DNA of 11,635 nt. Source: Thermoplasmata archaeon (GTDB taxonomy: Archaea; Thermoplasmatota; Thermoplasmata; Thermoplasmatales; Thermoplasmataceae). The stretch is taken from positions 1 through 11,635 of the forward strand of contig JAKAAK010000086.1 of the NCBI GenBank assembly GCA_021797025.1. Reading direction: 5' to 3'. A model generated the notes under the pieces. It saw only the letters and a list, made by a program, of their open reading frames with translations. It ran no database searches and was not told where the DNA came from. Below are positions 185 through 10,558 of the stretch, one piece after another. Positions within the stretch are counted from its first letter, which is position 1, and each line of letters starts with the position of its first letter. The position numbers and the translations under genes are program-made.

Positions 185-1015
185 TTATTTACTCTTCTGT
201 GTTTTCTTTGATGATTTTGATCTTTTCCACTTAGGTACACGCACGGTATTTCTTCTTCCGGACGCAACAATAAGGAATATTGCAAATGCAACTGCAACAG
301 CGGCTATGTAATATACCCAATCATAATTTGGTGCCTTACCATTATAGAATACTATGGATGATTTTCCCTGAAGTGTTATAACCGGATTATTTGTGGTTAC
401 TGTTAATGTATTCTTTCCTTTATATACAGAAGCCGCCGGAACGGTAATATTATCCTTATAAACAGAATTTCCATTTATTTTAGCTATATGGCTTGGGGGC
501 AGGACTTTGGAAGATGTTCCATGGGCTATAGTATAAGTCAGAGTTATGTTATATATAGGTACAGGGTCTGAATTTTTAACTGTTGCACTTAAAACTATGG
601 GTCTACTGACGTTGATCGTTATGCTGGAAGTGTATGAAATTTTATGACCGGTTGAATTTATAGCATAGCCATCTACGTATCCATAAATATTTTCGCATTC
701 TGATGGTGCAGTAACGGCTATAGAGAACGTTCCATTTGTTGAGCTATGATAATAAAATAGTGGAGAGAGACCGGTGTCGTTAACAGCTCCGAAATACGCC
801 GCAACAGAGTAATTATGATACCCAGAATGTGCAATACTAAGATTAACGTTGAATGTTTCGTTTTCATAAACGCAGGCCGGAGCTGATGGAGTAAAAGAGA
901 AATTGGATGCGGAGGCTTCCGGTATCTCTGTATGTATGCTTGAAACTGGAGCTACACCTGATAATGCGATTAGAGCGAAAATCACTGAAAACATGATTAA
1001 TAATGTATATTTCAT
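185..1015 (-). CDS. Type I membrane-anchored, sequon-rich surface protein
   Basis: A 276-residue protein of unknown family. Residues 1 to about 22 are a hydrophobic export signal or anchor (MKYTLLIMFSVIFALIALSG). Residues about 25-230 form a Ser/Thr/Asn-rich, beta-strand-like ectodomain with ten N-x-S/T sequons by hand count (N38, N52, N58, N68, N79, N94, N120, N135, N156, N189) and two cysteines (C48, C107) that could pair. Residues about 138-225 read like an Ig-like or CARDB-type sandwich. A single membrane helix follows (about 232-251), then a strongly basic cytoplasmic tail (RRNTVRVPKWKRSKSSKK...). The start is fixed by a good ribosome binding site 7 nt upstream, lying over the end of aglB. 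The gap to the aglB stop is 5 bp, so the two are almost certainly co-transcribed. Inference: it is an N-glycosylated surface protein and either a substrate or a partner of AglB. The function itself is unknown. Confidence 0.85.
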   Translation of the reverse strand: MKYTLLIMFSVIFALIALSGVAPVSSIHTEIPEASASNFSFTPSAPACVYENETFNVNLSIAHSGYHNYSVAAYFGAVNDTGLSPLFYYHSSTNGTFSIAVTAPSECENIYGYVDGYAINSTGHKISYTSSITINVSRPIVLSATVKNSDPVPIYNITLTYTIAHGTSSKVLPPSHIAKINGNSVYKDNITVPAASVYKGKNTLTVTTNNPVITLQGKSSIVFYNGKAPNYDWVYYIAAVAVAFAIFLIVASGRRNTVRVPKWKRSKSSKKTQKSK

Positions 1016-1020
1016 TTAAT

Positions 1021-4000
1021 TTACCTCTTTTTCCTCGATCTGATTGAAGAACCGATAATTCCTGCAAGTAATGCAGCTACTATTATGCCGATGCCTATAT
1101 AGATTGTAATATCAGGATTCGCTGTGTAATCATTAATTATAGTGGTTCCTGATGATCCTGTACCTATTGTGGCTGAAGGCAGCACTGGGGTAATGGTCTT
1201 ATTATCATAAATTTCTCCTATACTCGTTGTAGTATTAGTGTCAACATCTATTGGCACTGAGTGTAATATTCTTCCATGTATACCATTTGCGTAGATATAT
1301 ACTATGATACTCTCCCCCGGATTTAGTGTTATATTTGTAAGGTTTTTGCCGTTATAGGTGAGATATGCACTTATATCATCTACCGATTTCAAATGGGCCG
1401 AATTTGAAATGCTCATGAATATATTCAGCGAAGTACTATTTGTATTCTTAATGGTTATGGGAATCATGTTTATTGTTCCGTTTACAGCAGCGTAATTAGA
1501 GTACGTGAAATTATACCCTGCCCCTTTTAGCACGTCCACCGTTATATTACCTATGCTCTGTGCAAAGTTGGTGTTATTAACCTTTATCCAGATAGGTATT
1601 GTGTTGTTACCAGCAGGAACAGCAGGAATTTCAATAACAATACTTACACTTTTTGTGGTATTTACTGGAATTGTGAAATTATTTTCGGAGAAATTTAGAT
1701 TCCATATACTTTTACCCGAATAAAGGTAAATTGTATTATTTATATTCCCTTTGTTCTGTATAGTTACATTTGTTGTGACCTTCTCACCGACATATCCGGT
1801 TACACTTGGGTCTGTAAGCACATATTTATATAGAGGCACAAGCTTAAGTGTGAGAGTCTCGGTAATTGATTTATTAAGGTATAGCGATACAGATTTTGAA
1901 TAATTAAACCATATTCCATTCTGGCTTGTTGAATTTATTAGTGTAAATTCGTAAGTACTGTTAGCCGGTAGGAAAATAGTGTGCGTTATTTCTGATGTGG
2001 TTATATACATTGAAGAATCGATGATGGTAAGATTTGTTGGAACATCCTTGCTGTTATACCCTTTAAGAGTAACGCTGAATGCGGGCATCATAAAAATATT
2101 GAAGGTCTTATTACTGAATGCATTTAATGTCGCGTTTTCGAAGTATGCATAATGATTTCCAGAATACGTATAGTTTGCATATATTCCATATGTTCCTGGA
2201 TTAAGGCCACTTACGGAGTAATTACCAGAAGAGGTCGAGTTTGTACTTTCAACAGTTTTTCCATCTCTTGTAATATCGATATGCACTCTACCGGAAATGG
2301 CTGTACTATTTGAATAATAAACGACGTTACCACTTAACTTGTCTTTAATTTCTGTGGGGACAAGACCGATCTTGAAGGTAGTATTGCCTGCAGATACTGT
2401 TACATTTATATATTGACCTTTGGCGTTTACATATGAATACGCGCCTGTTGAATTTATGAAGTTACCGCTCGAGGTTATTGTGTAATTGGATGACGGCAAC
2501 ACCATAGTTGTGTTACTGCTCTGCGCCGTCTCTATTTCCTCGGTTCCGTTCTTAATGCGGTATGATGCTGGTATATTCAGATTATTTGTAATATCTATTT
2601 TATAACCTTTAACATAAACGATATCCACTGTTGTATTTTGAGTTATTGTAATTCTGCTAAGATTTACAATAGTCCCGTTTACTTCATTGGTTTCATTATA
2701 AGAATACAGTGTGTATGTCCCTGCGGGTATATGTGATAATCTAACAGGAATTCCAGTTGAATTAATGAGATAGGTTACAGGTCGTTCTATTGTCTTATTT
2801 GAATTTATCAGGCTAAAATAGAGGTCTGTATTCTTCATAAATATCTGGGAATTGGAGTTATTGACTACAGTGCCTGTTATTACCGGCACTATGTAAGCAC
2901 TCTTACTTGAAACTTGGGTATAGTATATGCCCTCAGCAACTTCTCCAATTGCCGTATTGTTTGTCATCTTTAATGTATAGGTGTTATATGAACCAATTAA
3001 AGATATATTTCCATTGTAATCTCTCGATGAATCGTTGTAAATGGATATATTTACACTAACCAGTTTCTGGGATACATTATATATTTGTTCATTTATATTG
3101 TTATTTGTATTATTATAGTAATATGGAGATTCGATTCTTACAGTGCTTGTATTATAACCATAAAGAGTGGCAATTCCGCTATTGAGCTCTGAATAATAAT
3201 ATGGAACCGTTCCATTGTATACTATTAGTATCCCCTCCGTAGCATAGCGAAGAGAGTTGTTGGTTGATGCTGTAATATTGTATGGAGCCTTAATATCAAG
3301 GTTCAATGTAATATTATAAGAGGTATCAGGGTTTGATACATTGAATCCGGATAAGGTGGTGCTGTTAAACGTTCCAGTTCCAGAGATTGAATAATTTCCA
3401 ATTGGCAGATAAATACGGTAAACATTACTGGAATTGGAATAAACAGAATACAGGAACGCACTTGAATTTGTGGCGAGTATTTCATAATGCCCACTGTAAT
3501 CCTTTGTCCCCTTCATTGTAGATCGAATATTGTAATAATGTGCCTGATGATAATTTATATTCATCACTACGTTACCTGTAACATTCAATGTCTGTACGAA
3601 TGCTTTTCCTGAGTCGTTGGAATAAATAGTATATACACCGTATGGCATATTTATATGGTAATATCCGGTAGAATTGGCGGTTACGTTCAGTGCATCTGAT
3701 ATTATCCCATTGAAGTATACCCAAACTTTAGCACCAGGGGCGGCTTTTCCTGATACATTGGCTGTCAATTCTGGTGTAAGTGTGATTGATTTTGTATTAT
3801 TCCATCCAGAAAGTGTAACAGAATTTTTATCCTCACTCCCATTTGATTTTATTGTAACAATATAGGTTCCAGGGAATACTGAGATACTTACCGTTCCGTT
3901 ACTCGGAGTTATTGCTTTGAATGTATAATTTCCCTCTGTTTGATTTACATAAACTGTATATCCAGATAGAGCAAGACTGTCCACGGAAGCTGTTACCTTA

Positions 4001-7000
4001 ATCTGATCCATTTTTATGGTTAAATTATAATGCTGCTGTGTTTTATAGCTAACATCTATTGTTGTGAAATTTTTATATATGTTACCGTCTGTTTTTACCG
4101 TTACATTATAGTTATATGGAATCACATTGCTCACAGAGTAAATGCCATTTGTTATGGTCACATTCCTTGTGATTCCGTATGTAGAATTGTCAAGTATAAT
4201 TGTACCGCTGTTTACGGCGTTGGAAGATGTTATATTATCAAGTATAACATTACCATAAACCGTATTCCTATGCAGGATCATATTCTCTGTAATGTTATAG
4301 TTACCGATCCGCTCTCCCTGATTGGTAGATACATTTACTGAGTTCGTACCAATAATATTTGTACCTTCCATAGAAAGCGAATTTACACTTCCTGTAGAAT
4401 AAACAAGGGTGTCATTTCCTGGTAATCCGGTTATTGTATAATATCCGGCGCTGTTTGTTGTAACTATCTCATGAGGTATTCCATACTGATCATCAATTGT
4501 TATATGAACTCCAGCAACACCTGCACCTGTGGCTGATGTTACCCTGCCGGTTATTACTGCACCCGGGTAATACTGGATGATTGGATCCTCTTCGCCGATC
4601 AGGTTTGCAGGGAGGAGCACTTCTGTTCCTTTTCCTTCCTTCTGATATGTGTATGCTGTCTGTATGGGTATAAGTGTCCATCCTGGAGTGGTGGATGTTG
4701 CATTCTTTGTAGGATTGTATTCTGAAGCATAATAAACCAGTTCAAAATTGCTCATATTAAATGCTGGAGATACAGATATTCTACCCCCCTCTAGTTCGCT
4801 TAGATACTGTGGTGGTATACCAACAACAGTGTTGTATATAGTAGTGTTATAAAACGTGGGTGTGTAGCTAAGGCTATAACTGGTCACTGTGGCACCTGCT
4901 GGGAGTTTGTTAAGTGGATATGTGGCACCAGTGCTTGTTGTTGCAATTACATTATAGTAGTTTATGGGCACAACTTCTCCATCTGCCGTATATGACGCCG
5001 TATCTGTTAGGTATGCAGGAGCATAGAAAATTCCCGGATTGTTCCCTGAAAATGGAAATAGTGCATGATCTATCTGAATATATGATAATGATGATCCTGT
5101 TACCTTTTCGAGGCCGGTATATGCAGATACAAGTATACTCACATTATATTTTGTAGACAGTTGGCCCATTATAAGTGCGTGCATTGCATTACCTGATGTA
5201 GTCACATTTATCTGATGGCTGCCATATGCAGTTTCATTTAACAGAGGGAGGTACCGTGAAGCCAGTGGATTTCCATACATGCCTGTTAAGGTATTTGTTT
5301 CATTGATTCCAAAATATTTATCCATGACAGCTGTTATAGTTGCGTTGAAATGACCATCGGAATAGCCGCCTGGAGTCTGCAGAACTCTTGATATGAAGAG
5401 TGAAATCCTCTGTGTCTGATTCTGCGCCAATAATATCTGCCCTGCGCTGGCTATTCCCTGCTGGAAATCATCGGCCACTGTTGGATGCCGGCCCTGCTCA
5501 AGTTCCTGGAAACCATAATCCCACCACGAAACATATGCTGGCCTATCCTGTATAGATTCATTGGCGTTCTGAGTTGCAAGCCATTCAAACGATGCTGCTA
5601 GAGGCTGGGTTTTATTGTCTATTGCTAGTCCATAATTCCCAAATGGATTGTCCGGTCTCAAGCCCTTGGGCAGCGTTGAATTTAGTATATGATCATATGA
5701 AGCCGCACTGTTTTCAGGTACTGACGCAGAAAATGCACCCATCCCGGATGGTATTATTAATATTAAAATTACAATTATGGCAAATCCCACTGTTACACCA
5801 CTGATATTTTTATGCAGTGATTTTCTACCACTTACATGTTTTGATTTCTTTGTGGCTTCATTATGCCTTATTATATCGGCAAAGTACATTATTAGCCCAC
5901 CACCTAGTATAGCATATACTGGTGCAGCAGTGATATTGAATCTTGCAGCCTCAAAACTCATGAATATGGAGAATATTGCAAATATAATTACCAGAAGAAT
6001 TGCTTCCTTTTTCTCTTTCAGAAATCTATATATTATAAATGGTACACCAGCAATTCCGAGCAGGAATAAACCGGGTCCAAAATCCGAAATATACTGACCA
6101 AGAGGTGGAGCGGCAGCCTCTGCAATAGTTGAGTATACCCTGGATTTGACAAAATACCCATCCCCAGTTATAAGTTCTTTGAGTATTGCTGGATTGGTCT
6201 TACTTAATACAAATAATGCTGCAACAATAACTATTACCATGGACGGAATTGTTATTATCCATGGCCTCCTTGCAACAATATTTACAAGAATCCCAAACCC
6301 AACTATCATAAGTCCCATGACCAGTGGTGGAATAAACCATGTATGCAGCATAAATGTCACATCATAATAATAGAATCCGATTGGGAAGGATGCTGCAACA
6401 TAAATGGCTGTGAGATACGTTAAATATCCTGTAGGTTTTTTAACTATTAAGTTGTAAATAAGCTGAACTGCGACATAGATAAGTAGTATAACTTCTATAT
6501 AAGGGAATCCCTGCCAGAAAACTATCAATCCGCCTAGGGAAACCGCGGCCATGAGAATATAAATCGTAGCTATTTTATTTTCTTCGTAATATTTCTTTAT
6601 TGAAGTGAAATATGATCTTGTATCTGTGAGTTTACTTATAATTACTCCTTTTTTGGCAGATATTACTGCCATTTCAAAGAAGTATATTGAAAGGAATGCA
6701 AATATAAGTTCCGGTGTATGGGCTCTACCGTCTGTGAGTATGCCGGATGTCAAGTTTCCTGGCATAATTGTGAATAATACAGCCGCGAACAACCCTGCTT
6801 TCTTTCCAAATATCTGTTTCGTAATAAGGTAAACAGGTATGATCAAAAGTGCACCATAGAAGGCGTCTGATTCCTGGAATGCATAATAAGCTCCCATTTT
6901 AAGTCCCATGAACGGAGAAAGTATGTATCCTGCAAAAACTATACTCCACTGATAGAAAGGTGGTCTCGGATTGACTGTACCTGCTGGATAATTAAGCAGT

Positions 7001-7221
7001 ATTGTATGAGTTAGCTGGGTGTGGGTGTTCAGTATGTACTGAACGAGATAATAATTAAAATAAGGGTCACTACCTCCTGATACGTTGAGGTATGATTGCT
7101 GAAACGCCAGAGACCATGCAAAAAAGTTTGACAGGAACATGTAAAGGGCAAGCAGCCCTATCAAAACTGGGATCTCTGGATGCCGGGTTAAGTTTTGCTT
7201 AATTCTATCTGTAATTTCCAT
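1021..7221 (-). CDS. aglB: Giant STT3/AglB oligosaccharyltransferase with beta-sandwich stalk
   Basis: Catalytic subunit of archaeal protein N-glycosylation. By family knowledge it transfers a lipid-linked glycan to Asn in N-x-S/T outside the membrane. Residues about 15-495 form a polytopic domain of roughly a dozen helices. The first-loop catalytic aspartate lies in GGSDPYF (D52), the EL5 motif is TIAE (365-368) and the hallmark WWDYG is at 566-570. A possible DK-type helix is MDKYFGI (633-639). The second acidic motif is irregular (DGRAHTPE, 164-171). Most AglBs end near 850-950 residues. This one continues with a CarboxypepD_reg/PEGA-like domain at about 886-942 (GRVTSATGAGVAGVHI...GYYTITGLPG), about ten diverged sandwich repeats to 1766, two larger Ig-like (NEW3/CARDB-like) domains at about 1800-2000, a membrane helix at about 2037-2058 and the tail RSRKKR. 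I count about 74 sequons after residue 880 and no cysteine in the whole protein. The frame is unbroken. A TATA box without a Shine-Dalgarno indicates leaderless or near-leaderless expression. Confidence 0.93.
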   Translation of the reverse strand: MEITDRIKQNLTRHPEIPVLIGLLALYMFLSNFFAWSLAFQQSYLNVSGGSDPYFNYYLVQYILNTHTQLTHTILLNYPAGTVNPRPPFYQWSIVFAGYILSPFMGLKMGAYYAFQESDAFYGALLIIPVYLITKQIFGKKAGLFAAVLFTIMPGNLTSGILTDGRAHTPELIFAFLSIYFFEMAVISAKKGVIISKLTDTRSYFTSIKKYYEENKIATIYILMAAVSLGGLIVFWQGFPYIEVILLIYVAVQLIYNLIVKKPTGYLTYLTAIYVAASFPIGFYYYDVTFMLHTWFIPPLVMGLMIVGFGILVNIVARRPWIITIPSMVIVIVAALFVLSKTNPAILKELITGDGYFVKSRVYSTIAEAAAPPLGQYISDFGPGLFLLGIAGVPFIIYRFLKEKKEAILLVIIFAIFSIFMSFEAARFNITAAPVYAILGGGLIMYFADIIRHNEATKKSKHVSGRKSLHKNISGVTVGFAIIVILILIIPSGMGAFSASVPENSAASYDHILNSTLPKGLRPDNPFGNYGLAIDNKTQPLAASFEWLATQNANESIQDRPAYVSWWDYGFQELEQGRHPTVADDFQQGIASAGQILLAQNQTQRISLFISRVLQTPGGYSDGHFNATITAVMDKYFGINETNTLTGMYGNPLASRYLPLLNETAYGSHQINVTTSGNAMHALIMGQLSTKYNVSILVSAYTGLEKVTGSSLSYIQIDHALFPFSGNNPGIFYAPAYLTDTASYTADGEVVPINYYNVIATTSTGATYPLNKLPAGATVTSYSLSYTPTFYNTTIYNTVVGIPPQYLSELEGGRISVSPAFNMSNFELVYYASEYNPTKNATSTTPGWTLIPIQTAYTYQKEGKGTEVLLPANLIGEEDPIIQYYPGAVITGRVTSATGAGVAGVHITIDDQYGIPHEIVTTNSAGYYTITGLPGNDTLVYSTGSVNSLSMEGTNIIGTNSVNVSTNQGERIGNYNITENMILHRNTVYGNVILDNITSSNAVNSGTIILDNSTYGITRNVTITNGIYSVSNVIPYNYNVTVKTDGNIYKNFTTIDVSYKTQQHYNLTIKMDQIKVTASVDSLALSGYTVYVNQTEGNYTFKAITPSNGTVSISVFPGTYIVTIKSNGSEDKNSVTLSGWNNTKSITLTPELTANVSGKAAPGAKVWVYFNGIISDALNVTANSTGYYHINMPYGVYTIYSNDSGKAFVQTLNVTGNVVMNINYHQAHYYNIRSTMKGTKDYSGHYEILATNSSAFLYSVYSNSSNVYRIYLPIGNYSISGTGTFNSTTLSGFNVSNPDTSYNITLNLDIKAPYNITASTNNSLRYATEGILIVYNGTVPYYYSELNSGIATLYGYNTSTVRIESPYYYNNTNNNINEQIYNVSQKLVSVNISIYNDSSRDYNGNISLIGSYNTYTLKMTNNTAIGEVAEGIYYTQVSSKSAYIVPVITGTVVNNSNSQIFMKNTDLYFSLINSNKTIERPVTYLINSTGIPVRLSHIPAGTYTLYSYNETNEVNGTIVNLSRITITQNTTVDIVYVKGYKIDITNNLNIPASYRIKNGTEEIETAQSSNTTMVLPSSNYTITSSGNFINSTGAYSYVNAKGQYINVTVSAGNTTFKIGLVPTEIKDKLSGNVVYYSNSTAISGRVHIDITRDGKTVESTNSTSSGNYSVSGLNPGTYGIYANYTYSGNHYAYFENATLNAFSNKTFNIFMMPAFSVTLKGYNSKDVPTNLTIIDSSMYITTSEITHTIFLPANSTYEFTLINSTSQNGIWFNYSKSVSLYLNKSITETLTLKLVPLYKYVLTDPSVTGYVGEKVTTNVTIQNKGNINNTIYLYSGKSIWNLNFSENNFTIPVNTTKSVSIVIEIPAVPAGNNTIPIWIKVNNTNFAQSIGNITVDVLKGAGYNFTYSNYAAVNGTINMIPITIKNTNSTSLNIFMSISNSAHLKSVDDISAYLTYNGKNLTNITLNPGESIIVYIYANGIHGRILHSVPIDVDTNTTTSIGEIYDNKTITPVLPSATIGTGSSGTTIINDYTANPDITIYIGIGIIVAALLAGIIGSSIRSRKKR
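1023..1028 (-). promoter_or_regulatory. Ribosome binding site for the 276-residue surface protein
   Basis: Read on the minus strand the sequence is AGAGGT, then a 7-nt spacer and ATG at 1015. It overlaps the last codon and stop of aglB. It is one of the few convincing Shine-Dalgarno sequences here, as expected for an internal operon gene in an archaeon whose first genes are leaderless. Confidence 0.75.
1927..4566 (-). repeat. Protein-level array of about 11 small beta-sandwich modules in aglB
   Basis: This covers AglB residues 886-1765. The modules are 50-60 residues and highly diverged. Each begins with a strand such as ITGRVTS, VSGKAAPG or LSGNVVYY and ends with a turn of the form G-x-Y-x-(I/V), for example FPGTYIVTI, PYGVYTIYS, PIGNYSISG, PAGTYTLYS and NPGTYGIYA. 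This is the carboxypeptidase-regulatory/PEGA/CnaB style. Approximate module starts are residues 886, 988, 1074, 1150, 1225, 1308, 1386, 1461, 1540, 1627 and 1714. There is no obvious DNA-level tandem repeat, so any duplication is old. The first and tenth modules are the most canonical. The boundaries are by eye. Confidence 0.7.
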
Positions 7222-7262: not shown

Positions 7263-8618
7263 TTATTTTAAGTCATTATTGTTCTCTGGTGCATTGTTCA
7301 TCATGTCTAAATACTCAAATCTGATTTTTTTATAAAATTCATGCCTCACTTTTTTAATATATATTACCAGTATGATTGAAAAAGATATATAGCACAGAAG
7401 CAAATAATTGATTACTGCAAAATATCCAGTATTCCCGTAAAATGACAAAATAAAGGCAATTGAGAGTATAATTGATGATAAAAACGGAAGGAAGAACTTT
7501 TGTTTCCTGAATATCCGTATCAATGACATATTAGATATGATATGTATTATGATATAGAGAAAGCTGATTATACCTGCAATTATTACGAAGGAATCAAAAA
7601 AACCAACGTAATGAATGAAAATTAATGATATTACTATAGAAAATATAAAAAGTCCGAGCATGAATTTATTTTTGCTGAAATTCTTCTTTACATTAAAATC
7701 ATTATAGAATTTTGGCATCATATGTACAAAGGCGTTTAGATATGAAACACTAAGGTTGAAGGCACTCATTAACCCGAATGTGGAAAATATTATAAGAAAT
7801 GGTACGCCTAGCCTTGCTCTTACGAGTTCTGTTATGTAGAATGAATTAGATTCATAGAGTGAGAGACCGTGGTATCCTGCAAACATCAGCAAGGCAAAAG
7901 CTGAAAATATCATAATAAGCCCTGATATGGTAAAAGATATAATTAAAGACCGTGGAGTGTTCATATGTGCCTTCGACGTTTCCTCAGACAAAAATATGCT
8001 TGAACCGCCTCCGGAAAATGCCAGTATCCCGAAGATTACACCAAAGAAAAATGGATTGAATGAAAATTTTATTCCTGAAAATGAAAAATCCGGCGATCTA
8101 AATATTAGAAAGATTATACTCATAGATATTACAAATGCTATTTCTATGAACCCTGCGATAAGTGTATACTTGATCGATATTCTGAAACTCCTTGATACTA
8201 CAAAATAAACTGTTGCAGTAAATGCAAATAAAAATATATATTCAATGTATGCCCCTTGGAATCCAAAAAGCTGTAGTATGGAATAAAGAAAACCTGATAT
8301 AAAGATAGAAATATTGGGAATAGTCAGCGCTGAATAACCGATATAAAGCAGGAATACAAGAAATCCTGCACCCTTCCCGAGGCCATTCCCAGCATATGAG
8401 TAATAGCCACCATTTGTTACATATACCTTGGAAAATGAGTATATGGTGTAAAGCGTGAAATATGAAAGCAGAAATGAGAATATTACAACAAATGGGAGCA
8501 TCGACCCTGAATAAAGGGCTATGATAGAAAACAGTGCGATAAAGTCCAGCATAGGACCAATGGAGGTGAATGATTGCATAACAGCCTCTCTGAGGTTTAC
8601 AGTTTCCATGGCAGCCAT
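7263..8618 (-). CDS. APC-superfamily amino acid permease
   Basis: A 451-residue integral membrane transporter, probably for an amino acid or amine coupled to protons or another cation. The substrate cannot be read from the sequence. I estimate about 12 hydrophobic segments between residues 17 and 422, the usual size for the family. Family signatures are a Gly-containing first helix (SFTSIGPMLDFIALF, 16-30), the GGYYSYAGNGLGKGAGF loop (70-86) that follows the second helix in APC permeases, and the sixth-helix region FSGGGSSIFLSEE leading into SKAHMNTPRSL (201-225). The last corresponds to the conserved A-E-E-x-x-x-P-x-x-x-I-P-R stretch. The C-terminal tail is short, charged and Asn-rich (NNAPENNNDLK). 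It starts 23 bp after the pheT stop. Met4 (ATG at 8609) is an alternative start. Neither start has a ribosome binding site, so a leaderless transcript from an AT-rich element near 8633-8645 or coupling to pheT are both possible. Confidence 0.85.
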   Translation of the reverse strand: MAAMETVNLREAVMQSFTSIGPMLDFIALFSIIALYSGSMLPFVVIFSFLLSYFTLYTIYSFSKVYVTNGGYYSYAGNGLGKGAGFLVFLLYIGYSALTIPNISIFISGFLYSILQLFGFQGAYIEYIFLFAFTATVYFVVSRSFRISIKYTLIAGFIEIAFVISMSIIFLIFRSPDFSFSGIKFSFNPFFFGVIFGILAFSGGGSSIFLSEETSKAHMNTPRSLIISFTISGLIMIFSAFALLMFAGYHGLSLYESNSFYITELVRARLGVPFLIIFSTFGLMSAFNLSVSYLNAFVHMMPKFYNDFNVKKNFSKNKFMLGLFIFSIVISLIFIHYVGFFDSFVIIAGIISFLYIIIHIISNMSLIRIFRKQKFFLPFLSSIILSIAFILSFYGNTGYFAVINYLLLCYISFSIILVIYIKKVRHEFYKKIRFEYLDMMNNAPENNNDLK

Positions 8619-8641: not shown

Positions 8642-10237
8642 TTATTTGATTCTTGAAAACAGGCTTTCTAGGTTTATTTCAACAAAGGCAACTGGATTCT
8701 GTACCCCGAAGTTTGTGAATACATCCGGATTCATTTCACCGATGATCCCAGAATAAATGTCATTAATTATGATCTTGCCTCCCCTACCGTTAATCATTTC
8801 TGGCATTTCTGCCGGGTCTACCCGGAAGTTTTTTCCTGCGGTTCTCGAAATTAAATATTCCATGACAGAATATATATCAGAATATGATGCGCGGGAATTA
8901 TTAAACAGTATGCAGAGATGGCTTTCCTGGATTCCTGATACAATAACATCGCCTATTTCAAATATTTTAACTGGTAGGCTTCTTCTGCGGTTTATACTCA
9001 AAATGTTAAGAAGGCCCGGAAATATTTTATCCCTTACGATTGAATAATCCAAGCTTTTTGGGTTTTCTATACTTACGTTACCGACATATCCTGTATTCCG
9101 GTAAAATTCCCCTGAATTCAGAACAAATGTTTTTACCTCTTGATAGTTAAGAGATATGAGGATTTCACTAATTATTCTATTATAATCGTTATAGATATAG
9201 GGATGGCCCGTGCCTGATGTCACAAGTATCTTCTCTTCAATATTGTCATATCCGTATGCCTTGGCTATATCCTCTATAAGATCAACCGGGCCCATTACAT
9301 CAATTCTGTTCCCAGGAACCTTAACATGATAACCGTTGGATGCAATTTCACATCTGTATCCCATTTTTCTGAGAAGCATAACTGTACTTTCAGGTTCTAT
9401 TCCCATAACTTTTTTAATCTCTCCGTGGGAAAGGTTGATTTCTCTCCAGTCATATTTTTTACCTTTACCTGTTATTTCTGGTATTGAAACTGAATAACCG
9501 ATAAATGTCATCTCATATGCGAATAGATACAATGCATGAAGTACAGCATTGTAGTCAGTACCTGTGATATCGAAGAAAATATTTGATGTGTTCTCTTCTA
9601 TTCTGGATTTAATCCCATTGATAATAGGTGGCATTGAAAGAATATCACCATCGCTATCAAGTATTACCGGAACAGAAGTTTTAGATTTTATTAGATTCCC
9701 ATATTGTTTCCCCTTATCATGATTTACCAGGATCTCTTCAGCAGTACCGTGGAAATTATCATATGTAGTAAATGATATTTCTTTCTTTCTTTTCATGATA
9801 AATTTAAACGGTGGTGTAATTTTATCCATGTCATGTATGCCTATTGCCATTTTTTTCCTGGATTTTCCTGCAGTATCATGTAGCCTTTCCTGATAGTCTA
9901 TAATATGCTTGTAATATTTTCCAAGTGGTTTTCCCTTCGCAATAAAGGACATTGCAAATGGCCTTTCACTCTCCACTGATTTATCTACTTTTAACAGTGA
10001 TTCAATTTTATGGAACACAGGCTTTATCGGATAGTCACCATCATAAAATATTTTCATTGCAGATTTCAGGGCATAAAATGAAAACAGATCTGGCCTGTCC
10101 GGATTGAATTCCAGTTTAATCTCTTCATCCTCTTCTATTGAATACCCTATAATGCCTGCAAAGTCATAGAGTTTTGAAAAATAATTTTTTCCTATATCAT
10201 TAATCAGATTCTGTTTTGTATTACGTATTACGACCAT
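8642..10237 (-). CDS. pheT: Phenylalanyl-tRNA synthetase beta subunit
   Basis: Cytoplasmic beta chain of the alpha2-beta2 PheRS, which charges tRNA-Phe. By family knowledge it carries tRNA binding and the B3/B4 editing module that clears Tyr-tRNA-Phe. At 531 residues it has the short archaeal/eukaryotic architecture without the bacterial N-terminal EMAP and C-terminal anticodon-binding extensions. Landmarks: LEFNPDRPDLFSFYAL (42-57) near the N terminus; the B3/4 module around KKMAIGIHDMDKITPPF (128-144) and TTYDNFHGTAEEIL (157-170); the B5 DNA-binding-like domain from REINLSHGEIKKVMGI (265-280) to VPGNRIDVMGPVDLIEDIAKAYGYDNIEE (307-335); and the pseudo-catalytic core with SIENPKSLDYSIVRDKIFPGLL (389-410) and FEIGDV (426-431). 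No pheS is in the window, and the two subunits are often unlinked in archaea. The ATG has a well-placed TATA box and only a weak AGGT upstream. Confidence 0.95.
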   Translation of the reverse strand: MVVIRNTKQNLINDIGKNYFSKLYDFAGIIGYSIEEDEEIKLEFNPDRPDLFSFYALKSAMKIFYDGDYPIKPVFHKIESLLKVDKSVESERPFAMSFIAKGKPLGKYYKHIIDYQERLHDTAGKSRKKMAIGIHDMDKITPPFKFIMKRKKEISFTTYDNFHGTAEEILVNHDKGKQYGNLIKSKTSVPVILDSDGDILSMPPIINGIKSRIEENTSNIFFDITGTDYNAVLHALYLFAYEMTFIGYSVSIPEITGKGKKYDWREINLSHGEIKKVMGIEPESTVMLLRKMGYRCEIASNGYHVKVPGNRIDVMGPVDLIEDIAKAYGYDNIEEKILVTSGTGHPYIYNDYNRIISEILISLNYQEVKTFVLNSGEFYRNTGYVGNVSIENPKSLDYSIVRDKIFPGLLNILSINRRRSLPVKIFEIGDVIVSGIQESHLCILFNNSRASYSDIYSVMEYLISRTAGKNFRVDPAEMPEMINGRGGKIIINDIYSGIIGEMNPDVFTNFGVQNPVAFVEINLESLFSRIK

Positions 10238-10267: not shown

Positions 10268-10558
10268 TTAGTTTTTTGTTTTTCCCTTTGCATATTCTCT
10301 TAAAATAAAACGTATAAGATCATTAACAGATATGGCATTCCCATTGTTAACCTCTTCTTCCAGTTCAGCATAAATATTTCTTGGGAGTTTTAAATCAACC
10401 TTGCTGGTAGAATTTACATGATTCTTTGATATGAATTCGTTTATTGCAAGGCGAATAGCCTCGGAAATTGTATTATAATGATTTTTCTCTACAATTTCCT
10501 GAAGCTGGTTAATTAAATCTTCTGAGACCCTGATAGTAATTCTGTACGGTACCGACAT
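10268..10558 (-). CDS. Tandem ribbon-helix-helix DNA-binding protein
   Basis: A 96-residue predicted transcription regulator that appears to contain two ribbon-helix-helix units in one chain. Unit 1 has a strand at 6-12 (RITIRVS), helix A at about 13-25, the turn NHYNTIS and helix B at about 31-44 (ISEAIRLAINEFIS). Unit 2 has a strand at 53-59 (KVDLKLP), helix A at about 60-71 (RNIYAELEEEVN) and helix B at about 77-90 (SVNDLIRFILREYA). Normal family members have one unit and bind DNA as dimers through a two-stranded ribbon. Two units in one polypeptide could form an intramolecular pseudo-dimer, as described for TraY of plasmid F. Alternating residues exposed on the two strands (R6, T8, R10 and K53, D55, K57) would contact DNA. 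It is divergent from truA across 108 bp and sits 30 bp upstream of pheT. The target is unknown: autoregulation, truA and pheT are all plausible. Confidence 0.85.
   Translation of the reverse strand: MSVPYRITIRVSEDLINQLQEIVEKNHYNTISEAIRLAINEFISKNHVNSTSKVDLKLPRNIYAELEEEVNNGNAISVNDLIRFILREYAKGKTKN

What the first reader, a model, noticed from the sequence alone, without database searches (positions are those of the whole stretch)
1021..7221. Oligosaccharyltransferase fused to a 1150-residue surface stalk
AglB normally ends after its soluble C-terminal domain, at about 850-950 residues. Here the same unbroken frame continues with about 11 small beta-sandwich modules, two larger Ig-like domains, a second membrane anchor and a basic tail, for 2066 residues in total. 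The enzyme is thus tethered at both ends and carries a long extracellular arm. In wall-less Thermoplasmatales such an arm could be structural glycocalyx, a spacer that presents acceptor sites, or a scaffold that captures exported substrates near the active site. I know of no described function for such an arm, and whether it is lineage-wide is unknown to me.
Basis: partly seen in the sequence, partly recalled or inferred. Interest (0 to 1): 0.75.

Follow-up and report, generated by a model that had tools for sequence, protein, structure and literature searches.

The report
Double-anchored archaeal sugar-attaching enzyme with partner
In a whole branch of archaea, many of them without a cell wall, the enzyme that attaches sugar chains to exported proteins carries a long outer arm, full of sugar-attachment sites, that returns to the membrane, and its gene is followed by that of a small, unstudied membrane protein that is probably its partner.

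Summary
On the minus strand, 1021-7221 encodes one 2066-aa AglB-type oligosaccharyltransferase: membrane part (1-500), soluble catalytic part (501-879), eleven transthyretin-like modules (~880-1796), two Ig-like domains (1797-2016), a second membrane anchor and a basic tail. It is no artefact: full-length relatives occur in Ferroplasma, Thermoplasma, Oxyplasma and Cuniculiplasma. Of 220 Thermoplasmatota genomes whose AglB frame I saw, 211 have one of at least 1,100 aa and 172 of at least 1,800. Acidiplasma lost the middle modules but kept both ends. Module 1 is as conserved as the enzyme and probably belongs to it. It follows AglB in 54 of 54 testable close loci, usually overlapping it by 4 nt, and lies downstream on the same strand in 116 of 124 diverse genomes; many other Thermoplasmatota lack a recognised copy. 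Best reading: a two-gene, double-anchored oligosaccharyltransferase in which arm and partner form an accessory scaffold, comparable in layout (homology not shown) to eukaryotic NOMO and OST1. Its function is inferred. New variant of a known enzyme, with a candidate new accessory subunit.

The parts
1021..7221 (-). Whole AglB-arm ORF, 2066 aa, stop codon included
   Evidence: Pfam/NCBIfam; relatives
5722..7221 (-). Residues 1-500: STT3/AglB membrane domain with D52 (GGSD) and TIAE (E368)
4585..5721 (-). Residues 501-879: soluble catalytic part with WWDYG (566-570)
   Evidence: WWDYG invariant 56 of 56; fold match to AglB structures
4264..4584 (-). Residues 880-986: module 1, TTR/CarboxypepD_reg-like, DQYGIPH motif; as conserved as the enzyme and probably the counterpart of the P1 unit of AfAglB-L (inference)
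   Evidence: conservation; column counts; VIA alignment of AfAglB runs to model residue 981; module-1 profile significant in 6 of 9 other Thermoplasmatota AglBs; sequence comparison with the PDB and with three short AglBs negative
1834..4263 (-). Residues 987-1796: modules 2-11 of the arm, TTR/prealbumin-like (limits approximate, read by eye)
   Evidence: DSSP of the arm model, Pfam CarboxypepD_reg/SdrD_B, profile similarity among modules, M6 weak
1174..1833 (-). Residues 1797-2016: two Ig-like domains
1030..1116 (-). Residues 2036-2064: second membrane anchor
   Evidence: helix in the model; family tails
1024..1044 (-). Residues 2060-2066: basic tail IRSRKKR, cytosolic side inferred
   Evidence: family tails; mean pairwise identity of 2026-2066 45%, against 36% for 881-1230 and 25-29% for 1231-2025
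185..1015 (-). Partner gene, 276 aa: signal peptide, CARDB/Ig-like ectodomain, one anchor, basic tail with PKW; starts 5 nt after the AglB stop
   Evidence: adjacency across the phylum

Best explanation
A lineage-wide oligosaccharyltransferase made of two linked gene products. SHOWN (sequence, predicted structure, comparison): AglB of Thermoplasmatales is continued by an array of ten further TTR-like modules and two Ig-like domains and ends in a second membrane anchor with a basic tail, so that the arm, if not cleaved, must form an arch rather than a free spike; the next gene encodes a small membrane protein with CARDB/Ig-like ectodomain and a basic tail with PKW, and stays next to it. INFERRED: the partner binds AglB; module 1 packs on the catalytic domain, the arch stands over or beside the active site, and its middle is a spacer while its ends are functional. 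Arm plus partner work as accessory scaffold: they hold export substrates and the enzyme together at the secretion site, with the basic tails of arm and partner facing the ribosome/SecYEG side, doing the job that separate accessory subunits do in eukaryotic OST and translocon. The arm itself carries many sequons and is probably densely glycosylated, which would also protect it in hot acid.
For: Stable architecture: 55 distinct relatives (chosen by length 2,000-2,140 aa) align over the whole length with few gaps; module profiles from six close relatives have their best hit at the orthologous position in 27 to 42 of 42 distant sequences, depending on the module, although several of these scores are low. 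Ends constrained, middle less: module 1 as conserved as the enzyme, last 41 residues 45% identical, 1231-2025 only 25-29%; Acidiplasma aeolicum and two related MAGs, 1,425-1,442 aa long, lack roughly residues 1153/1225 to 1880/1907 but keep modules 1-4 (or 1-3), the last Ig domain, anchor, tail and partner. Other Thermoplasmatota arms differ greatly in length, yet 9 of 10 ORFs read in full end in one predicted anchor. Partner: present behind AglB in 54 of 54 loci with enough sequence; 43 of 52 inferred starts overlap the AglB stop by 4 nt (longest ATG/GTG/TTG start taken, 32 of the 43 with ATG); in 116 of 124 genomes downstream on the same strand within 5.5 kb of the end of the AglB match. One STT3 above cut-off per genome in the 8 of 12 genomes where the Pfam model rings. 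Sequon observed/expected 1.98-2.55 in the arm and 2.10 in the partner, 0.86 in the cytosolic control PheT.
Against: No interaction, localisation or activity datum exists here. The arm's low sequence conservation is what a passive stalk would also show. Arm and partner do not need each other everywhere: 35 genomes with a printed AglB row have no printed partner row, 20 of them with frames over 3,000 aa, and of the 72 genomes none outside the ten that I entered has a printed partner row. In one of the ten ORFs read in full (L132, 1395 aa) there is no second anchor. Nothing shows contact with ribosome or SecYEG; short basic tails are common on single-span proteins (general knowledge).
Confidence: 0.45

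Rival explanations
1. Surface stalk or glycocalyx: the arm is a glycan-loaded structural protein of wall-less cells that happens to be fused to the enzyme, as SlaB-like stalks are in S-layers.
Against: The partner ectodomain (2.10) and the enzyme's own soluble part (2.04) have similar sequon excess, so the excess is not special to the arm. An enzyme is a poor bulk coat protein (inference). The module array is stable within the order. Both ends are anchored.
Confidence: 0.25
2. Self-acceptor or spacer: the arm mainly presents many acceptor sites or sets the distance of the active site from the membrane or coat, without binding anything.
For: Dense sequons; middle modules dispensable in Acidiplasma; AglB length free to vary across the phylum.
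Against: Does not explain the second anchor with conserved tail nor the adjoining, usually overlapping partner gene.
Confidence: 0.15
3. Neutral accretion: beta-sandwich modules were added to the enzyme's own terminal beta-domain and are kept only because removal is rarely neutral.
For: TTR-like domains occur in many unrelated proteins; modules 1-11 are linked by profile similarity except that M6 is weak.
Against: Stable length and module order in 55 distinct sequences (chosen by length); conserved tail; linked partner gene.
Confidence: 0.12
4. Assembly or gene-calling artefact joining AglB to a neighbouring stalk gene.
For: Two relatives (L040, L061) show broken frames.
Against: The same single frame in complete genomes (Ferroplasma acidarmanus Fer1 NC_021592; T. 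volcanium GSS1) and in dozens of independent assemblies.
Confidence: 0.01

Closest known systems
Archaeoglobus fulgidus AglB-L (O29867; 3waj, 5gmy, 7e9s)
   Different: AfAglB chains end near residue 870; no arm, no second anchor. Its C-terminal region has units CC, IS and P1 (PMC3703281, section 7 read)
NOMO (BOS complex, eukaryotic multipass translocon)
   Same: A long extracytoplasmic array of prealbumin/TTR-like domains ending in one anchor (layout of NOMO partly recalled); best PDB sequence match of the arm profile (9c7v_B, E 3.5e-9)
   Different: The NOMO match is the sum of weak stretches, best 20.0 bits; NOMO is a separate polypeptide, not fused to OST; NOMO-type Pfam models are also listed for bacterial proteins
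OST1/ribophorin I and TRAP-alpha (for the partner gene)
   Same: Signal peptide, beta-sandwich ectodomain, single anchor, cytosolic C-terminal segment (topology of OST1 and TRAP-alpha recalled); the OST1 cytosolic domain of an Asgard archaeon binds ribosomes (PMC11417166, abstract and passages)
   Different: Neither is among the Pfam families shown for the partner (25 of 33 shown); the partner's tail is short; OST1 is reported there from eukaryotes, TACK and Asgard archaea
SlaB of the Sulfolobus S-layer and Gram-positive adhesin/pilin stalks (TIE, SdrD, SpaD)
   Same: Tandem beta-sandwich stalk folds
   Different: No enzyme attached; anchoring differs in the Gram-positive ones (recalled)

Membership tests
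AglB/STT3 oligosaccharyltransferase | STT3-type fold | tested here: met
AglB/STT3 oligosaccharyltransferase | WWDYG motif, first acidic catalytic residue and TIxE motif | tested here: met
   WWDYG, D52, T365/I366/E368 invariant in 56 of 56 (roles of the motifs recalled)
AglB/STT3 oligosaccharyltransferase | Second acidic (DxD-type) motif | tested here: inconclusive
   D164 in 42 of 56, G in 12, W in 2; flanking G165, R166, H168, T169, P170, E171 each in 54-55 of 56
AglB/STT3 oligosaccharyltransferase | DK or MI motif of the sequon pocket | not tested
   not located here
AglB/STT3 oligosaccharyltransferase | NCBIfam TIGR04154 (archaeosortase-associated subfamily) cut-off | tested here: not met
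   168.5 bits against 450; so not filed in that subfamily
AglB/STT3 oligosaccharyltransferase | Glycan transfer activity | not testable with these tools
   needs biochemistry
NOMO (for the arm) | Array of prealbumin/TTR-like domains followed by one C-terminal anchor | tested here: met
   but the arm also has two Ig-like domains before the anchor
NOMO (for the arm) | Specific sequence relationship to NOMO rather than to TTR-like domains in general | tested here: inconclusive
   best PDB hit but weak per stretch; NOMO models just over cut-off in P0118 and L130; none for the window protein at E <= 1; one search shows the models are unspecific; not among the 50 rows
NOMO (for the arm) | Separate polypeptide in a complex with nicalin and TMEM147 | not tested
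   here the array is fused to AglB; nicalin/TMEM147 relatives were not sought
OST1/ribophorin I (for the partner) | Signal peptide, beta-sandwich ectodomain, one anchor, C-terminal cytosolic segment | tested here: met
   (sequence, CARDB profile and hydropathy; no structure of the partner was predicted)
OST1/ribophorin I (for the partner) | Ribophorin_I profile | tested here: inconclusive
   0 of 12 genomes, but the controls ring in only 1 of 14 and below cut-off; not among the 25 of 33 families shown for 34 partner sequences
CARDB-domain membrane proteins (for the partner) | CARDB profile | tested here: met
   30 of 34 members at E <= 0.1, best 6.9e-10; the window's own copy does not match; best PDB match 2l0d, 'cell surface protein', E 2.6e-4

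The most novel reading that the evidence does not exclude
Thermoplasmata use a two-component, translocon-coupled oligosaccharyltransferase: the NOMO-like arch fused to AglB and the CARDB/Ig-anchor partner encoded behind it together play the parts of OST accessory and translocon subunits, an independent answer to the same problem in archaea outside the TACK/Asgard lineages where OST1 has been reported.
Probability: 0.25. Interest if true: 0.85.

Novelty: new variant of a known kind. Interest (0 to 1): 0.62.

Why it matters
Archaeal AglB is usually treated as a single-subunit enzyme of about 850-1000 residues (recalled). Here most of the genomes sampled from an archaeal phylum show enlarged forms, in many cases next to a membrane protein that no annotation seen here names. 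If the partner is a true subunit, it would be a candidate accessory OST subunit outside the TACK/Asgard archaea, and whether archaeal N-glycosylation is coupled to export becomes directly testable in cultivated species (Thermoplasma, Ferroplasma, Acidiplasma), with Acidiplasma as a natural short-arm variant.

Tried and rejected
Artefact reading rejected. NOMO homology: not claimed; the summed E-value 3.5e-9 rests on four weak stretches, best 20.0 bits, while a single bacterial domain (6hif_Y) scores 24.9 bits in one stretch, and NOMO-type Pfam entries are listed for unrelated bacterial proteins too. NOMO was not among the 50 rows of either structural list, which excludes nothing. TRAP homology of the partner: no support in what searches show. 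Module 1 as counterpart of AfAglB P1: supported only by the range of a structural alignment; the module-1 profile found no AglB in the PDB and hhalign against three short AglBs was negative (probability under 1). Partner derived from the arm's Ig domains: hhalign probability 90 for the pair, 67 and 8 for Ig1 and Ig2 alone, left open.

Literature: in seven searches no listed title or abstract start deals with an AglB arm or with this partner; the library lacks most subscription journals, so published mention is not excluded. AglB surveys that I recall could not be read; Vinogradov 2012 on T. acidophilum glycans was seen only as a reference.

Weak points of my counts: the 55 distinct sequences come from 69 chosen by a length of 2,000-2,140 aa (shorter, truncated, broken and the 2,197-aa forms and L049 were left out), so near-constant length there is partly by choice. 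One search prints the best-scoring 149 of 381 matching genomes, which favours long forms; the 72 genomes are part of the 232 not printed, taken in handle order; for G054 and G045 I counted the longer of two pieces; open-frame lengths run stop to stop and some are cut by contig ends. One search prints 149 of 178 matching genomes; into I entered 149 AglB rows and 10 (the roughly 1,860-2,030-aa group; one, G110, cut at a contig end). 25 partner genomes had no AglB row to compare; 35 AglB genomes had no partner row, at least 9 of them with weak unprinted partner matches. 'Downstream' means within 5.5 kb of the end of the AglB match, with the rest of the arm between where the match is partial. Partner start sites are inferred (longest start). 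One search looked only 500 nt downstream. Module limits are read by eye from DSSP; M6 is the least certain. Genome names were not available for G handles; that the 3,000-3,240-aa forms could be Poseidoniales is a guess.
Full report
WHAT IS THERE. The finding's coordinates are right, but the gene lies on the minus strand: 1021-7221, ATG to stop, 2066 aa. Pfam finds STT3 at 43-455, exactly at its cut-off, and CarboxypepD_reg with 68 bits in five stretches, the best at 890-942. NCBIfam's archaeal STT3 model matches 20-604 with 168.5 bits, below its 450 cut-off. The closest solved sequence is A. fulgidus AglB.

WHERE THE ENZYME ENDS. Module 1 (880-986) is as conserved as the catalytic part (information 3.1 bits for 901-950; 50-residue blocks of the enzyme range from 2.4 to 3.6), has a nearly invariant DQYGIPH stretch, and the structural alignment of A. 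fulgidus AglB runs on to model residue 981. That enzyme's C-terminal region holds a beta-rich P1 unit (PMC3703281, section 7). I therefore think module 1 is the counterpart of P1 and the true extension begins near 987. This is inference: sequence profiles do not link module 1 to AglBs in the PDB or to three short AglBs, although a module-1 profile finds the corresponding stretch in 6 of 9 other AglBs of the phylum tested.

HOW WIDESPREAD. A search of 5.8 billion proteins gave 125 relatives; of the 120 listed, 111 are 2,052-2,188 aa long and 104 align over at least 90% of the query in one BLASTP piece, among them T. volcanium TVG1271204, Oxyplasma and Cuniculiplasma (shorter than 0.55 times the query cannot appear). 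The scan of reference genomes gave 61 loci including Ferroplasma acidarmanus Fer1 and Acidiplasma aeolicum. In 391 genomes of the phylum of Ferroplasma, 381 matched; of the 149 whose rows were printed (the best-scoring ones), 137 have an AglB open frame of at least 1,800 aa, 11 of 1,100-1,799 and 1 shorter. Of 72 of the other 232, taken in handle order and searched with TIGR04154, 71 matched: 35 of at least 1,800 aa, 28 of 1,100-1,799, 8 shorter. Together 211 of 220 are at least 1,100 aa and 172 at least 1,800. Ten such ORFs were read in full: 9 of 10 end in one predicted anchor, with proteins of 1,868 to 3,139 aa; the tenth, 1,395 aa, has none. The tails behind the anchor are short and mostly basic. 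Pfam finds CarboxypepD_reg in 6 of the 8 that were scanned and CARDB in 3 of 8. In 12 genomes searched with the Pfam STT3 model 8 ring, and in each the only hit above cut-off is the long AglB; 4, Ferroplasma among them, do not ring with that model.

EVOLUTION OF THE ARM. Fifty-five distinct relatives of 2,000-2,140 aa plus the window align with few gaps (at most 16% in any 50-residue block): mean pairwise identity 52-53% in the enzyme, 36% for 881-1230, 25-29% for 1231-2025, and 45% for the anchor and tail. Module profiles from six close relatives find their best match at the orthologous position in 27 to 42 of 42 distant sequences, depending on the module; scores are low for several. So this looks like a fixed array rather than a recombining repeat. 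Acidiplasma is a natural experiment: in A. aeolicum (1,425 aa) and two related MAGs (1,442 aa each; lengths) BLAST segments end at residue 1152-1224 and resume at 1881-1908, so the middle is gone while the first modules, the last Ig domain, anchor, tail and the partner gene remain.

THE PARTNER. The next gene, 185-1015 on the minus strand, starts 5 nt behind the AglB stop. Its product has a signal peptide, a CARDB/Ig-like ectodomain, one anchor and a basic tail; in 34 aligned sequences a motif F-Y-x-G-x-x-P-x-Y-x-W before the anchor and PKW behind it are nearly invariant. Of 60 loci with a readable AglB frame (L061 is broken), 54 have it: 52 by BLAST, L057 and L060 by layout and position; the six others end within 272 nt of AglB. 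Of 52 starts inferred directly behind AglB, 43 overlap the AglB stop by 4 nt, 32 of these with ATG. Genes of the same layout follow the deeply diverged L128, L133, L134 and L136 but were not seen within 500 nt behind L127, L129, L130, L131, L132 and L135. A profile search over the phylum matched 178 of 391 genomes. For 124 genomes both an AglB and a partner position were at hand; in 116 the partner lies on the same strand within 5.5 kb of the end of the AglB match; in 7 of the 8 exceptions the two are on different contigs, in the eighth at opposite ends of one contig. Thirty-five genomes with an AglB row had no partner row, 20 of them with frames over 3,000 aa. So the partner belongs to a large part of the phylum, not to all of it. 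Pfam knows only CARDB in it with any frequency (30 of 34 members at E <= 0.1, not the window's own); its 49 protein-database relatives carry no functional name beyond 'CARDB' (2) and one ribbon-helix-helix label that looks wrong.

GLYCOSYLATION SITES. The window's arm (881-2030) has 74 N-x-S/T sequons against 32.8 (s.d. 4.7) in shuffles. Over 48 sequences observed/expected is 1.98 for modules 2-11, 2.55 for the Ig domains, 2.23 for module 1, 2.04 for the enzyme's soluble part, 1.85 for the membrane part; 2.10 for 52 partner ectodomains, and 0.86 for 41 cytosolic PheT. So the exported parts are enriched in sequons generally; the arm adds 43-83 sites per molecule in the 56 sequences counted.

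MECHANISM. Shown: architecture, stable order, conserved ends, gene neighbourhood. Inferred: since both ends are anchored, the uncleaved arm is an arch, with a maximal height of about half its contour length. Conserved ends and a dispensable middle suggest that the junction with the enzyme (module 1) and the membrane-proximal end are the working parts. Gene order with a 4-nt overlap suggests the partner is made together with AglB and bound to it. The most economical function is a scaffold that keeps enzyme, substrate and export site together. Coat, acceptor and neutral readings remain possible and are scored as rivals.

COMPARISON WITH WHAT IS KNOWN. The arm profile's best PDB hit is NOMO2 of the eukaryotic BOS complex (E 3.5e-9), but as a sum of weak stretches, and the similarity is at the level of the TTR/prealbumin superfamily. 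NOMO's prealbumin-like domains are numbered up to 12 (PMC11186639, passages). The partner resembles OST1 and TRAP-alpha in layout only. OST1 is reported from eukaryotes, TACK and Asgard archaea, and its cytosolic domain binds ribosomes (PMC11417166, passages). The Cuniculiplasma genome paper mentions AglB only as present (PMC5155288, passages). In seven literature searches no listed title or abstract start deals with the arm or the partner; the library is incomplete.

VERDICT. A real, lineage-wide and phylum-spread variant of a known enzyme, plus a strongly linked, unnamed candidate subunit. Its anatomy is secure; its function is inferred.

Noticed in passing
window 185-1015 (minus): Unnamed signal-peptide/CARDB/anchor protein with PKW tail directly behind AglB, usually with a 4-nt overlap in relatives; made part of the finding.
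   Followed up: yes
window 8642-10237 and 10268-10558 (minus); L001-L061: pheT-like and ribbon-helix-helix genes have relatives near AglB in 41 loci each, 38 of 41 on the same strand; conserved neighbourhood of unclear meaning. The permease at 7263-8618 has relatives near AglB in 10 loci.
   Followed up: no
G027, G309 and others (L127, L131): AglB open frames of about 3,000-3,280 aa in many Thermoplasmatota genomes, with one final anchor in the two read in full and no partner of the usual layout within 500 nt.
   Followed up: partly
window protein residues 160-172 (window 6706-6744): The second acidic motif region is GILxDGRxHTPEL-like, with D164 replaced by G in 12 and W in 2 of 56 sequences; it looked unusual for AglB to me.
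   Followed up: no
L007, L008, L009 (Acidiplasma aeolicum and two related MAGs): AglB of 1,425-1,442 aa: the middle of the arm is missing while both ends and the partner are kept; a natural short-arm form.
   Followed up: yes
L040 (E-plasma scaffold) and L061 (Thermogymnomonas): AglB frame is broken into pieces; sequencing error or real, not examined.
   Followed up: no
L128 and L136: AglB-like proteins of 1,868 and 2,013 aa without CarboxypepD_reg in Pfam (no Pfam family at all at E <= 0.1 for L128) and without a match to the pattern WW[DE].G, yet with final anchor, basic tail and the partner gene; arm and active site there may be of another type.
   Followed up: no
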